Assembly: GCF_017084525.1 (NCBI RefSeq)
Contig: NZ_CP070950.1
Coordinates: 2,480,001 to 2,544,000, forward strand
DNA length: 64,000 nucleotides
Direction: 5' to 3'
Source: Conexibacter sp. SYSU D00693
Lineage (GTDB): Bacteria > Actinomycetota > Thermoleophilia > Solirubrobacterales > Solirubrobacteraceae
A model generated the notes under the pieces. The model ran no database searches. It was not told the DNA's origin and was given only the letters and a program-made list of their open reading frames with translations. Below, piece after piece: positions 13,258-40,962 of this stretch. Within the stretch, counting starts at the first letter, position 1, and every line of letters begins with the position of its first letter. The position numbers and the translations under genes were made by a program.

Positions 13258-14449
13258 GGTCGACGTCACCGTCCTGGGCGTCCACGGCGGCGCGCTGCCG
13301 GCCGACGGTGGCGGGTGCCTGGCAGCCGCCACGGTCGTCGCCGGGGGCGCCGCGGTGCTCGAGGCGCTGGCGCCCGAGGGCGCGCGGCGCATCGTCCTGC
13401 GCGCCCCGCTGGAGGACGCGCTCGACGAGCTGCTGGCCGCCGACGGCCCGCGCGTGGTCCTGGCCAGCGGCGACCCGGGGTTCTTCGGGATCGTCCGCGC
13501 GCTGCGCGAGCGCGGCGCGACGCTCGACGTGCGCCCGGCGCCCTCGTCGGTCGCCGTCGCCTTCGGCCGGGTCGGGCTGTCGTGGGACGACGCGCTGGTC
13601 GTCTCCGCCCACGGCCGCGCGCCCGAGCCGGCGCTGCACGCCGCGCTGCGCCACCCGAAGGTCGCCGTCCTCACCGAGCCGCGCACGCCGCCCTCCTGGT
13701 TCGCGCAGCGCCTCGCGGGGACCGGCCGCCGGCTCGCGGTCGCCTCGCGGCTCGGCGAGCCCGACGAGCGCGTCGTGCTCGGCGCGCCCGAGGAGCTGAC
13801 CGACGTCGCGGCCGACGAGCCCAACGTCCTGCTGAGCTGGGACCCGGACGCGCCGTCGCCCAAGCGCGCCGTCCCGCCCGCCGCCGCGGGGCCCGGGGCG
13901 TGGGCGCTCCCCGACGACGCCTTCGAGCAGCGCGGGCGGATGGTGACCAAGCGCGAGGTCCGGGCCCTCGCGCTCGCGCGGCTCGGGCCCGGGACCGGCG
14001 ACCTCCTGTGGGACGTCGGCTGCCACTCCGCCTCGGTGGCCGTCGAGGCCGCGCGCCTCGGCGCCGCCGCGATCGGGATCGAGCGCGACGCCGAGGTCCT
14101 GGAGCTCGCGCGGCGCAACGCCGCGGCCCACGGCGTGCCGGTGCGGCTCGTCCACGGTGCGGCGCCGGGCGCGCTCGCCGACCTGCCCGACCCGGACGTC
14201 GTCTTCGTCGGCGGCGGCGGCGCCGACCTCCCGGCGATCCTGGACGCGACGCTCCCCCGGGTGCGCCGCGCCGTGGTCGTCACGCTCGCGCTCCTCGACC
14301 GCGCCACCCCGGCGCTCGAGCAGCTCAGCGCCGGCGGCTTCGCGGCCGACGGCACCCTCCTGCAGGCCAGCCGCCTCGCGCCGCTGGCCGGCGGCCACCG
14401 CCTCGCCGCCGAGAACCCCGTCGTCGTCCTCACGGGGGTCCGCCGGTGA
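13250..14449 (+). CDS. cobL: Precorrin-6Y C5,15-methyltransferase (decarboxylating), CbiE-CbiT fusion
   Basis: The 399-residue CobL combines an N-terminal CbiE-like C5-methyltransferase (about residues 1-205, with VVLASGDPGFFGIVRAL) and a C-terminal CbiT-like C15-methyltransferase/decarboxylase (about 210-399, starting PDDAFEQRGRMVTKREVRAL). The CbiT SAM-binding motif I reads WDVGCHSASVAVEA, whereas the family normally has VGAGSGSV; the GxGxG glycines are reduced to one. The downstream acidic ligand IGIERD is kept, so SAM binding is still plausible. It starts at GTG 13250, inside the last codons of cobM. Confidence 0.93.
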   Translation: MAEVDVTVLGVHGGALPADGGGCLAAATVVAGGAAVLEALAPEGARRIVLRAPLEDALDELLAADGPRVVLASGDPGFFGIVRALRERGATLDVRPAPSSVAVAFGRVGLSWDDALVVSAHGRAPEPALHAALRHPKVAVLTEPRTPPSWFAQRLAGTGRRLAVASRLGEPDERVVLGAPEELTDVAADEPNVLLSWDPDAPSPKRAVPPAAAGPGAWALPDDAFEQRGRMVTKREVRALALARLGPGTGDLLWDVGCHSASVAVEAARLGAAAIGIERDAEVLELARRNAAAHGVPVRLVHGAAPGALADLPDPDVVFVGGGGADLPAILDATLPRVRRAVVVTLALLDRATPALEQLSAGGFAADGTLLQASRLAPLAGGHRLAAENPVVVLTGVRR

Positions 14450-14856
14450 TCGCCGTCGGGGTGGGGTGCTCGCGCGGCTGCGCGGCCGACGAGCTCCTGG
14501 AGCTCGTCGACGGCGCGCTCGCCGCCGCCCGGGTCGAGACCGTCGACGTCCTCGCCTCCATCGACGTGAAGGCCGACGAGCCGGGGCTGCTCGAGGCCGC
14601 CGCCCGCCGCGGCTGGCCCCTGGCCTTCCACGCCGCCGAGACCTTGCGCACCGTGCCCGTCCCCACCCCCTCCGCCGTCGTCGCCGGCCACGTCGGCACG
14701 CCCTCGGTCGCCGAAGCCGCCGCGCTCCTCAGCGCCGCCCCGGCCGAGCTCCTCGTCCCCAAGCGCCGGTCGGCCAACGCCACCTGCGCGGTGGCCGTGC
14801 GAAGAAGGGGACTGTCCCCTTCTTCGCAAAGGCCTGCAAACGGGGTGGTCGGGTGA
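14446..14856 (+). CDS. cobE: CobE / CbiG C-terminal domain protein with a palindromic repeat at its 3' end
   Basis: The 136-residue protein equals only the C-terminal domain of CbiG (CobE): GVGCSRGCAADELLELVDGAL, the core VKADEPGLLEAAARRGWPL, the PTPSAVVAGHVGTPSVAEAAAL segment and LLVPKRRSANATCAVAV. In CbiG this domain takes part in lactone opening and loss of acetaldehyde; CobE itself is less well defined. The normal family end is reached at about residue 118. The last residues are encoded by a 29-base palindrome (14799-14827) plus following DNA, so the C-terminus looks rewritten by a repeat insertion. The start overlaps cobL by 4 bases and the stop overlaps cobH by 4. Confidence 0.88.
   Translation: MIAVGVGCSRGCAADELLELVDGALAAARVETVDVLASIDVKADEPGLLEAAARRGWPLAFHAAETLRTVPVPTPSAVVAGHVGTPSVAEAAALLSAAPAELLVPKRRSANATCAVAVRRRGLSPSSQRPANGVVG
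14799..14827. repeat. Palindromic repeat, GGGGACTGTCCCC family, inside cobE
   Basis: The arms are 14 bases and perfectly complementary around one central base; the core is GGGGACTGTCCCC. The same core occurs intergenically at 39375-39407 and 40886-40927. In the cobH frame it would read as KKGTVPFF. Confidence 0.9.
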
Positions 14857-38855: not shown

Positions 38856-39308
38856 ATGTCGGACGAGGCCCCCGTCCCACCACGACACGGACGCCCCGAC
38901 CACGATCCACCGCTCGCCTGCCGCGCCAACGCGCTCAAGGCCAGCCACACGCCTGTGCCTGCCCGCGTCGCGGATCGCCCAGCCGCCACCGGCGATGACG
39001 AGGAACCGGGACTTCCGGCGGTCGCCCTCCACCTGGCCGCCACCGTGGGGATCGCCTTCGCCGGCGGGGCCACCCTCTTCTGGCTCTTCGGATGGATCGA
39101 CGGTCTCAACCACGCGGTCTGGGTCGCGTGTGGCTGCCTCATCGCCTTTCTCGCCACCGCCTTCGGCCGGACGCGACGGGGCCGAGCCGTGAGCGAGTGG
39201 TGGCAGGACATGGGCCGGGCTCGTGCCGAGCCGCTCTCGGACGAGGAGCGCGAGGCGCTCCACGTCCCCTACGTCGAGCGCGACCCCAAGTCCCTGCGCC
39301 ACTTCTGA
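38856..39308 (+). CDS. Two-helix membrane protein with GRAVSEWW tail, local paralogous family
   Basis: The 150-residue protein has a disordered, Pro- and His-rich N-terminus of about 55 residues. Two helices follow (AVALHLAATVGIAFAGGATL and VWVACGCLIAFLATAFG) around the turn FGWIDGLNHA, and the tail is GRTRRGRAVSEWWQDMG. The turn and tail align with the 39962 and 40387 products. The last 35 residues are acidic to mixed. AAGGA lies a few bases before ATG 38856. It has no known function. Confidence 0.65.
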   Translation: MSDEAPVPPRHGRPDHDPPLACRANALKASHTPVPARVADRPAATGDDEEPGLPAVALHLAATVGIAFAGGATLFWLFGWIDGLNHAVWVACGCLIAFLATAFGRTRRGRAVSEWWQDMGRARAEPLSDEEREALHVPYVERDPKSLRHF

Positions 39309-39316
39309 CCGGCCCC

Positions 39317-39348
39317 GTGAAAGAAGGGGTCAGACCCCTGGTGCTCAC
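39317..39348. repeat. Palindrome with core GGGGTCAGACCCC
   Basis: An imperfect inverted repeat with GTGA/TCAC outer ends and a perfect 13-base core GGGGTCAGACCCC, just after the 38856 gene. The same core occurs at 40822-40846. Confidence 0.8.
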
Positions 39349-39374
39349 ACGCCGGGGATGGGCCTAGGCCTCGC

Positions 39375-39407
39375 GTGCGAAAAAGGGGACAGTCCCCTTC
39401 TTCGCAC
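39375..39407. repeat. Palindrome with core GGGGACAGTCCCC
   Basis: A 33-base inverted repeat with one mismatch in 16-base arms. The core is the same family as at 14799-14827 inside cobE. Confidence 0.88.
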
Positions 39408-39417
39408 GGGCTGCGTG

Positions 39418-39443
39418 AGGAGAAAGGGTCAGGCCCCTTCTTC
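39418..39443. repeat. Decayed palindrome (AAGGGTCAGGCCCCTT core)
   Basis: It has arms similar to the neighbouring repeats, with several mismatches. It is probably a degenerate copy of the GGGGTCAGACCCC type. Confidence 0.6.
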
Positions 39444-39520
39444 AGGGGACGGTCGTCGGAGCGCCTGACCACTCGGCGAACGTGCTGGCAGACGAGCGGC
39501 GGAGGTGGTCTCATCGGCAC

Positions 39521-39958
39521 ATGGGGAGGGGCACGGAGGCACCGCCGGGCGCGCTGGCCGCGCCAGCGAAGGAGCTGAAGGAGCGTCTGCCGCCGGCCCC
39601 GGCGCGCGAGGACGGCGACCGGGAGGACCAGGGCCCGCTCGAGCGCCGTGCGTCGGTCCTCGAGCGGATGCTGGGTGACCGGGCGCCATGGCTGGTGCGA
39701 TGGCTGCCGGTGGCCGGCGCCGCGCTCGGCGTCGGGTTCGGCCTCGGGATGGCCGTGTTCGCCGATGTCGACTGGCTCATCGTCCGTGAGGTCAGCGTCG
39801 TCCTCGGCGCGGTGGTCGGTCTCCTCCTCGGGCGCACGGCCGGCGAGCACCTTGAGTCGGCGATCAGCGACATCCCGGCGTCCGACGTGCCGGAGCGCCT
39901 GCGAGCGCCCACGGCCGAGGAGCGCCGCCACGACGCGATGACGCGGCGCGGGCTCTGA
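39521..39958 (+). CDS. Two-helix membrane protein with ALA-AKELKERLPPAP head, local paralogous family
   Basis: The 145-residue product starts with GALAAPAKELKERLPPAPAR, a charged amphipathic head shared with the next two genes. It continues with an acidic stretch, two helices (LPVAGAALGVGFGLGMAVF and VSVVLGAVVGLLLG) and a hydrophilic tail with GRTAGEHLESAI. The ATG is chosen over GTG 39482, which lies in repeat-flanking DNA. The upstream space holds three palindromes. No homologous family of known function comes to mind. Confidence 0.65.
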   Translation: MGRGTEAPPGALAAPAKELKERLPPAPAREDGDREDQGPLERRASVLERMLGDRAPWLVRWLPVAGAALGVGFGLGMAVFADVDWLIVREVSVVLGAVVGLLLGRTAGEHLESAISDIPASDVPERLRAPTAEERRHDAMTRRGL

Positions 39959-39961
39959 GCC

Positions 39962-40390
39962 ATGAAGGCGCCGACCCGCCCAGACGAGGACGCCGTGCCG
40001 CCCGCCGGTGCCCTCGCGCAGCGCGCCAAGGACCTCGAGGAGCGCCTCCAGCCGGCGCCGCGGCGAGGAGAGCGCCCGGAGGCCCTCAGGAGCTCCCCGT
40101 GGAGGGGGTGGGGCCCGGTCATCGGCATCGCCGCCGGCCTCGCGGCCGCGCTCGGCGTCTGGGTGACGACGGGCTGGAGCGGTCCGCTCGACGAAGCACT
40201 GGCGGCGAAGGTGAGCGTGGTCCTTGCGGTGGCGGGCGTCGTCACGCGAGAGACTCGCGCCGGCCGCGCGGTGGAGCACTGGATCCTCCACGGGCCGATG
40301 CGCCGGCCCGACCGGTGGGCCGAGGCCGCGCCCGGCGATCACCGGGATCACTCACGGGACCGTGTGCGCCCCGAACGCGGACCGCTGTGA
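39962..40390 (+). CDS. Two-helix membrane protein with LAQRAKDLEERLQPAP head, local paralogous family
   Basis: The 142-residue protein has the head GALAQRAKDLEERLQPAPRR, two helices (VIGIAAGLAAALGVWVTTGW and VSVVLAVAGVVT) around SGPLDEALAAK, and the tail RAGRAVEHWILHGPMR. Its head, turn and tail align with the 40387 product and, less well, with 39521 and 38856. The start lies 3 bases after the previous stop and its own stop overlaps the next start (GTGA), so the three genes form one transcription unit. Confidence 0.68.
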   Translation: MKAPTRPDEDAVPPAGALAQRAKDLEERLQPAPRRGERPEALRSSPWRGWGPVIGIAAGLAAALGVWVTTGWSGPLDEALAAKVSVVLAVAGVVTRETRAGRAVEHWILHGPMRRPDRWAEAAPGDHRDHSRDRVRPERGPL

Positions 40391-40821
40391 GCGAGACGTC
40401 GGACCCGACCGTCGCTCGCCGGGCGTCGGGTGCGCTGGCCGAGCGCGCCGAGGACCTGAAGGGCCGTCTCCCGCCGGCGCCGCAGCGCGCAGACGACCGG
40501 GACGTCACAGCCCAGGACGACGAGGGCGCGCTGCTGTCGCCTGTGGGCGCGGCGGCGATGAGCATCGCGGCGGCCTTCGCGCTCTGGATCGCCGTCGGAT
40601 GGGGCGACCCGATCGACCAGGCGCTGACGCTCGGGCTCGCGGCGGTCCTGGCGGTGGCCGGCGGTCTGCTCGGGAGGACGGGTCGCGGAAGGGCGGTCAA
40701 GGAGTGGTGGCGCCTCACGTGGAGCGACGGCCACCGGGAGAGGGTCACGAACGAGGACTTCGAGCAGCTCGAGGCACATCCGGCCGAGCGAGCCGCGCGG
40801 CGACGAGGGCCGATGGGCTGA
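40387..40821 (+). CDS. Two-helix membrane protein with LAERAEDLKGRLPPAP head, local paralogous family
   Basis: The 144-residue protein has the same plan: head GALAERAEDLKGRLPPAPQR, an acidic linker, two helices (AAMSIAAAFALWIAVGW and LGLAAVLAVAGGLLG) around GDPIDQALT, and the tail GRTGRGRAVKEWWRLTWSDG. GTG 40387 overlaps the previous stop by 4 bases. Directly downstream come further palindromic repeats. The related proteins might form hetero-oligomers in the membrane; this is inference only. Confidence 0.68.
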   Translation: MSETSDPTVARRASGALAERAEDLKGRLPPAPQRADDRDVTAQDDEGALLSPVGAAAMSIAAAFALWIAVGWGDPIDQALTLGLAAVLAVAGGLLGRTGRGRAVKEWWRLTWSDGHRERVTNEDFEQLEAHPAERAARRRGPMG

Positions 40822-40846
40822 GAAGAAGGGGTCAGACCCCTGCTTC
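40822..40846. repeat. Palindrome with core GGGGTCAGACCCC
   Basis: An inverted repeat with 12-base arms and one mismatch, starting directly after the stop of the 40387 gene. Confidence 0.85.
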
Positions 40847-40860
40847 CGACGCGTCGGCGG

Positions 40861-40927
40861 AGGGCCCACGCGAAGAAGGGGACAGGGCCCACGCGAAAAA
40901 GGGGACAGTCCCCTTCTTCGCGTGGCC
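40861..40927. repeat. Composite repeat: duplicated half-arm plus full GGGGACAGTCCCC palindrome
   Basis: A 23-base half-arm occurs twice in tandem (40861-40883 and 40884-40906, one base different). The second copy is completed to a full palindrome ending at 40927. This looks like replication slippage within one repeat. Confidence 0.85.
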
Positions 40928-40929
40928 CC

Positions 40930-40962
40930 GTGAGAAGCAGGGGTCGGACGCCTGCTTCTCAC
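40930..40962. repeat. Palindrome GTGAGAAGCAGG...CCTGCTTCTCAC
   Basis: Perfect 12-base arms around a GGTCGGACG centre, a diverged member of the GGGGTCAGACCCC type. It ends 25 bases before the -10 box of the next gene, so it might also act as a terminator for the upstream unit. Confidence 0.82.

What the first reader, a model, noticed from the sequence alone, without database searches (positions are those of the whole stretch)
39317..40962. Cluster of two related palindrome families among small membrane genes
Cores GGGGACAGTCCCC and GGGGTCAGACCCC occur at six places in 1.7 kb, with a seventh copy inside cobE 25 kb away. They differ by swapping the central bases but keep similar AAGAAGGGG arms, so they look like one REP-like family spreading in intergenic DNA. 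Translated, they give KGTVPFF-like peptides that can appear as false protein ends.
Basis: partly seen in the sequence, partly recalled or inferred. Interest (0 to 1): 0.65.

Follow-up and report, generated by a model that had tools for sequence, protein, structure and literature searches.

The report
REP-like palindromes spread by RAYT transposases
The cluster is part of a set of short hairpin repeats scattered at over a hundred places in this bacterium's chromosome, each family matching the repeat that flanks its own single-strand-DNA transposase gene; it is a known kind of mobile repeat, found here in a lineage for which I saw no earlier description.

Summary
In detail: 4 exact and 3 degenerate copies lie in 39317-40962, plus one at the 3' end of cobE (14798-14828). 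The own genome (4.43 Mb) has 38 exact GGGGACAGTCCCC and 88 GGGGTCAGACCCC; reversed controls give none. The REP/RAYT idea is supported, but 'one family' is only partly right. Three Y1 HuH transposase genes lie elsewhere in the genome, each flanked by its own palindrome: an ACAGT core, a TCAGA core, and a third, AAAGTGCCAGGCACTTT. The window's TCAGA copies differ in their arms from those beside the TCAGA transposase and share arms with the ACAGT family. Across 232 genomes of the order, palindrome-rich genomes carry the transposase, and cores read off transposase flanks predicted which palindrome is abundant in relatives. Copies lie mostly between genes, in every gene context; at cobE two relatives lack the palindrome. 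Closest known: TIRYT 'TIRtron' elements (motif GGGGWSAS) and REPtrons; the GTAG foot of canonical REPs is absent. New here: fully palindromic repeats in this order, centred on CAG, with the bases beside CAG differing between transposases. Movement itself is inferred, not shown.

The parts
39317..39348 (+). Type C palindrome, exact TCAGA core at 39326-39338 (GTGAAAGAA-GGGGTCAGACCCC-TGGTGCTCAC)
39376..39406 (+). Type A palindrome, exact ACAGT core at 39385-39397 (TGCGAAAAA-GGGGACAGTCCCC-TTCTTCGCA)
   Evidence: hairpin -23.3 kcal/mol, z -6.45
39414..39446 (+). Degenerate type C palindrome (core AGGGTCAGGCCCC, 39425-39437)
40819..40850 (+). Type C palindrome, exact TCAGA core at 40828-40840
40862..40884 (+). 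Left half of a type A element; first copy of a 23-bp direct duplication whose second copy is 40885-40907 (one mismatch)
   Evidence: read; one search reports the half-core at 40878
40892..40922 (+). Type A palindrome, exact ACAGT core at 40901-40913; stem extends into the flanks (40885-40929)
   Evidence: hairpin -34.1 kcal/mol, z -6.5
40930..40962 (+). Degenerate type C palindrome (core GGGGTCGGACGCC) with perfect outer arms GTGAGAAGCAGG/CCTGCTTCTCAC
14798..14828 (-). Type A palindrome, exact ACAGT core at 14807-14819, at the 3' end of cobE
   Evidence: absent at the cobE-cobH junction of two same-genus relatives
14446..14856 (+). cobE (CbiG_C domain, residues 2-117 of 136); part of the last 19 residues is encoded by the palindrome

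Best explanation
The palindromes are non-autonomous, REP-like repeats copied about the genome by RAYT/TIRYT-type Y1 HuH tyrosine transposases encoded elsewhere in the same chromosome. Likely steps: when a copy is single-stranded, for example at a replication fork, it folds into a CAG-centred hairpin; the matching transposase recognises the hairpin, cuts beside it through its catalytic tyrosine, and the strand is joined to a new place, mostly between genes; tandem arrays grow afterwards. Each transposase keeps its own family: RAYT-A (genome 3380575) the ACAGT palindrome, RAYT-B (286145) the TCAGA palindrome, RAYT-C (2918729) AAAGTGCCAGGCACTTT. Shown here: dispersed copies, pairing of core with neighbouring transposase, co-occurrence across genomes, no conserved position at two sites, and the motifs and predicted fold of the transposase. 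Inferred from studied REPtrons: hairpin recognition, cleavage and movement. The window cluster is a mixed patch of A copies and C copies (A-like arms with a TCAGA core). Type C has no matched transposase in this genome and may be a relic or an arm/core recombinant. New stop codons and protein ends such as KGTVPFF are probably by-products.
For: 38 and 88 exact copies against 0 in reversed controls. Exactly three Y1_Tnp genes in the genome, each flanked by its own palindrome. HuH and Y---NP motifs; NCBIfam REP_Tyr_transpos at 75, 66 and 82 bits, cut-off 80; PDB 4er8, E. coli TnpAREP with its REP hairpin, is the best match by profile and by predicted fold. In 232 genomes, 12 of 15 palindrome-rich genomes carry Y1_Tnp against 17 of the other 217 (p 5e-10, not corrected for ancestry). 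Prediction tests: the core beside the G062 transposase occurs 67 times in G062; the core beside the g23 transposases occurs 7-43 times in five g23 genomes and 0 times in the 13 others searched, including the g23 genome without a transposase. 47 of 56 sites lie outside genes, against about 9% expected. Two relatives lack the palindrome at cobE-cobH.
Against: No movement was seen; relatives are too distant for exact joints. Type C has no matched transposase here. Three palindrome-rich genomes (64-84% complete) gave no Y1_Tnp hit. G193 has 46 copies of the CCAGG core without a flank I read that explains them. The tree shows core type clustering only weakly by transposase descent. Canonical features (GTAG foot) are absent.
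Confidence: 0.9

Rival explanations
1. They are intrinsic transcription terminators or mRNA 3'-end hairpins kept by selection at gene ends.
For: Stable hairpins (A copies z about -6.5); many lie just after a gene, as at cobE and in the window.
Against: No T-run follows the stems (profiles); the terminator scan finds one site in 3.3 kb against 0.4 by chance, and on one strand only. Sites occur in divergent gaps (12 of 56) and inside genes (9 of 56). The fixed sequence, tandem arrays and pairing with transposases are not explained.
Confidence: 0.04
2. They are operator or regulator binding sites of a transcription factor.
For: Near-invariant inverted-repeat cores.
Against: Found in convergent gaps, at gene ends, inside genes and in arrays of up to eight; absent from the examined positions in relatives; core identity differs between related genomes together with the transposase flanks.
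Confidence: 0.02
3. Window types A and C are one family served by one transposase (RAYT-A) that accepts both ACAGT and TCAGA when the arms are GAAGMAGGGG.
For: A and C copies sit side by side and share arms; 10 of 38 A copies have C-like right arms (TTCTCAC).
Against: Only ACAGT copies flank RAYT-A. Exact C copies number 8 against 38 for A, and two of the four C copies in the window are degenerate, as expected of an older or poorly served family.
Confidence: 0.35

Closest known systems
TIRYT / 'TIRtron' elements (Di Nocera et al. 2013, PMC3733652; largely subclass 2.1 in Quentin et al. 2018, PMC6006769)
   Same: Y1 HuH transposase with Y---NP motif and, in the three own proteins, a helix-turn-helix-like C-terminus; flanking repeats carrying GGGGWSAS (GGGGACAG, GGGGTCAG); some published TIR families are dispersed, clustered and self-complementary.
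   Different: Here the repeats are full palindromes centred on CAG across the order, with up to about 100 copies; Quentin et al. found no repeats beside subclass 2.1. Most relatives' transposases of about 200 aa lack the C-terminal extension.
REPtrons: REP sequences with TnpAREP/RAYT (E. coli; groups 2 and 3)
   Same: Short palindromes in many copies, mostly intergenic, one family per transposase; nearest solved structure is 4er8.
   Different: No GTAG/GTGG tetranucleotide at the foot of the hairpin; type B arrays are direct tandems (57 of 59 neighbours on one strand), not inverted doublets.
CGTC-tagged REPs (PMC3733652)
   Same: Type B reads ...CCCCGTCGCA, so a CGTC string occurs at one end.
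   Different: CGTC REPs have 8-9 bp stems, loops of 4-5, a CCA-like tail and no linked transposase; here part of CGTC is inside the stem and a transposase is linked.

Membership tests
REP/RAYT system (broad sense) | High-copy short palindrome, mostly extragenic | tested here: met
   126 exact copies; 47 of 56 sites outside genes
REP/RAYT system (broad sense) | Y1 HuH transposase gene flanked by the same palindrome | tested here: met
   4er8 best structural match
REP/RAYT system (broad sense) | The transposase cuts and moves the repeat | not testable with these tools
   Needs purified protein or strain comparison
Canonical GTAG REP (REPtron) | GT[AG]G tetranucleotide at the foot of the hairpin | tested here: not met
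   Profiles show TGCGAAGAA / TTCKCAC (A) and GCTC / GTCGCA (B)
TIRYT / TIRtron | Flanking repeats with GGGGWSAS | tested here: met
   GGGGACAG and GGGGTCAG beside RAYT-A and RAYT-B; RAYT-C has GTGCCAG instead
TIRYT / TIRtron | Y---NP tyrosine motif and HuH | tested here: met
   YIARNP/NHVH, YIPLNP/DHIH, YVPLNP/DHVH
TIRYT / TIRtron | C-terminal helix-turn-helix (HTH_23, HTH_28, Bac_DnaA_C) | tested here: inconclusive
   Only sub-threshold Pfam HTH matches; three C-terminal helices in the RAYT-A model
TIRYT / TIRtron | Placement in subclass 2.1 by the authors' profiles | not testable with these tools
   Published subclass profiles are not held
CGTC REP | Unpaired terminal CGTC, no dedicated transposase | tested here: not met
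   CGTC only in type B and partly in the stem; transposase linked
Intrinsic terminator | T-run after the stem, placed after genes only | tested here: not met

The most novel reading that the evidence does not exclude
In this order the repeats follow one rule, a palindrome centred on an invariant CAG, and the base beside it (A-CAG-T, T-CAG-A or C-CAG-G, with the next stem bases) acts as a recognition code that keeps several transposases and their repeat families apart within one genome. The code has switched repeatedly as the transposases diverged, and the palindromes arose by symmetrising the GGGGTCAG... terminal repeat seen beside related transposases in other phyla.
Probability: 0.35. Interest if true: 0.55.

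Novelty: new variant of a known kind. Interest (0 to 1): 0.4.

Why it matters
It links two things described apart, the terminal repeats of TIRYT transposases and high-copy REP palindromes, in a group for which I found no such report among the held papers. Three families with three matched transposases in one 4.4 Mb chromosome, and relatives with switched cores, form a natural series for testing how a HuH transposase tells its own hairpin from its neighbours'. It also warns annotators that protein ends such as KGTVPFF come from repeats.

Tried and rejected
Rfam on the whole window: no match. Terminator reading: no T-run, and sites also lie in divergent gaps. GTTTGCAGGC beside some copies as a further repeat: not above chance in the window. 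Core type against the transposase tree: clustered only weakly (7 changes, shuffled mean 10, as low in 5 of 200 shuffles), many branches unsupported, and near copies carry the signal. The small genes between the clusters as cargo: paralogues without a Pfam family above cut-off, no tie to the repeats found. Counting degenerate copies with GGGGNCAGNCCCC at one mismatch: background too high in this GC-rich genome (424 against 173 for the control, and one palindrome is counted on both strands).

Full report
CHECKING THE OBSERVATION. In 39317-40962 there are four exact copies (TCAGA at 39326 and 40828; ACAGT at 39385 and 40901) and three degenerate ones (39425, 40878, 40940). The 40878 copy is only the left half of an element and lies in a 23-bp direct duplication, 40862-40884 / 40885-40907. 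The distant copy is at 14807-14819 on the minus strand. In the 4.43 Mb own genome the exact cores occur 38 times (ACAGT) and 88 times (TCAGA), while the same patterns read backwards occur 0 times. This is not chance.

ANATOMY. Aligning all copies gives three types. A: TGCGAAGAA-GGGGACAGTCCCC-TTCTTCGCAC, 38 copies, mostly single, with a mismatch-prone spot 8-9 bases from the centre, a nearly fixed left arm and a more variable right arm. B: GCTC-GGGGTCAGACCCC-GTCGCA, 77 copies, in direct tandem arrays with spacings such as 24, 33, 42, 45 and 54 bp, often alternating with a second unit, GGTGCCAGGGCAyGTCGCA, that shares the GTCGCA tail. C: TGAGAAGcA-GGGGTCAGACCCC-TgCTTCTCAC, 8 exact copies, with A-like arms. 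Three further TCAGA copies have GAGC on the 3' side. The window holds A and C only. Arms are exchanged: 10 of 38 A copies have a C-like right arm. The A hairpins fold strongly (z about -6.5).

TRANSPOSASES. Pfam Y1_Tnp finds three genes in the genome. RAYT-A (3380575) has an ACAGT copy just upstream and one overlapping its 3' end; its last codons...QGTVPFFAGR, come from that repeat, and the structure model gives the end of this tail pLDDT below 50. RAYT-B (286145) has TCAGA type B copies upstream and four in inverted orientation downstream. RAYT-C (2918729) has GGAAAGTGCCAGGCACTTTCC upstream and a degenerate copy downstream; AAAGTGCCAGGCACTTT has 8 exact copies genome-wide plus more with one mismatch, against 0 for the control. 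The proteins carry HuH and Y---NP motifs, match NCBIfam REP_Tyr_transpos at 75, 66 and 82 bits against a cut-off of 80, and resemble E. coli TnpAREP (PDB 4er8) best by sequence profile and by predicted fold. In four TCAGA-flanked transposases the TGA stop codon lies at the centre of the palindrome GGGGTCTGACCCC (L033, L111, L115, L128).

RELATIVES. Among 232 genomes of the order, 15 have nine or more GGGGWCAGWCCCC copies; 12 of these have a Y1_Tnp hit against 17 of the other 217 (Fisher p 5e-10, not corrected for ancestry). The three without are 64-84% complete. Among the 17 are genomes with other cores (such as G062) and strong hits that look like ordinary IS200 transposases (bit scores above 100). 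Beside the transposases, perfect odd palindromes centred on CAG are strongly enriched: 45 in 63 kb near, 8 in 225 kb far, most of the near ones in this order. Cores differ between transposases: ACAGT, TCAGA, CCAGG and forms with other stems. I then predicted genome content from transposase flanks. GGGGCCAGGCCCC, seen beside the RAYT of G062, occurs 67 times in G062, 46 times in G193 and at most 6 times in the other 16 genomes. AGAGGGACAGTCCCTCT, seen beside RAYTs of genus g23, occurs 43, 43, 41, 17 and 7 times in five genomes of that genus and 0 times in the 13 others searched, among them the g23 genome without a RAYT. The 46 CCAGG copies of G193 are not explained by a flank that I read.

OUTSIDE THE ORDER. 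Eighty related transposases from many phyla mostly carry non-palindromic terminal repeats beginning GGGGTCAGGTCTTG or close to it; 48 of 80 gave a clear inverted pair, and 39 of these contained a GGGG-type motif. This is the GGGGWSAS motif of TIRYT elements (PMC3733652). The shared GGGGTCAG suggests, but does not prove, that the palindromes here derive from such repeats.

POSITION. By crude codon-usage gene calls, the 56 sites fall as 28 co-directional gaps, 12 divergent, 7 convergent and 9 intragenic, against about 91% of random positions being intragenic. At the cobE-cobH junction two same-genus relatives lack the palindrome; here it lies directly after the CbiG_C domain (residues 2-117 of 136) and supplies part of the last 19 residues. 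Upstream of the carboxymuconolactone decarboxylase gene next to the cluster, relatives also lack palindromes, though gene order there differs.

MECHANISM. Best supported: non-autonomous repeats moved as single-stranded hairpins by matched HuH transposases. Shown: copy number, flanking association, co-occurrence, predicted contents of relatives, protein fold. Inferred from studied REPtrons (PMC8266576; PMC6006769): hairpin recognition, cleavage at a dinucleotide beside the hairpin, strand transfer. Whether copies do anything for the host after insertion is open.

WHAT IS KNOWN AND WHAT IS NEW. Di Nocera et al. already described dispersed, sometimes self-complementary TIR families of TIRYTs. Quentin et al. 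state that each tnpAREP has its own REP family, found no repeats beside subclass 2.1, and report that Actinobacteridae carry only subclass 1.1. No held paper contains the ACAGT core or pairs repetitive extragenic palindromic sequences with Solirubrobacter. New here are the full palindromes across this order, the invariant central CAG with variable neighbours, and three matched pairs in one genome. The tree gives only weak support that core type follows transposase descent; in the own genome the three transposases group together (support 80/88) although their cores are A, T and C types, which implies core switching.

Noticed in passing
window 38856-40821: Four tandem paralogous genes of 142-158 aa (31-35% identity to the first) with a shared LAxRAxxLxxRLxPAP start and hydrophobic stretches, without a Pfam family above cut-off.
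   Followed up: partly
L092, L093, L069, L070 (own genome about 324 kb, 612 kb, 1.60 Mb, 1.64 Mb): Type B palindromes alternate with a second unit, GGTGCCAGGGCAyGTCGCA, in regular tandem arrays (42-45 bp); both units end in GTCGCA, and the second resembles the core beside the third transposase.
   Followed up: partly
L033, L111, L115, L128: The stop codon TGA of four transposases lies at the centre of the downstream palindrome (GGGGTCTGACCCC), so the repeat ends the gene that is thought to move it.
   Followed up: partly
L118 (G065) and L121 (G060): Two same-genus transposases (a close pair on a long branch, with NHTH in place of NHVH) have no CAG-centred palindromes beside them, and their genomes have almost no copies of the cores searched.
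   Followed up: no
own genome 1165346-1165448: A small 45-bp tandem array with a mixed core (GGGGACAGACCCC) lies about 400 bp from an array of three type A copies of the same period.
   Followed up: no
window 14829-14843; also beside copies near 1639.9 kb and 3208.9 kb of the own genome: A string like GTTTGCAGGCctTT recurs beside several A and C copies; not above chance in the window alone, so a target preference or coincidence.
   Followed up: partly
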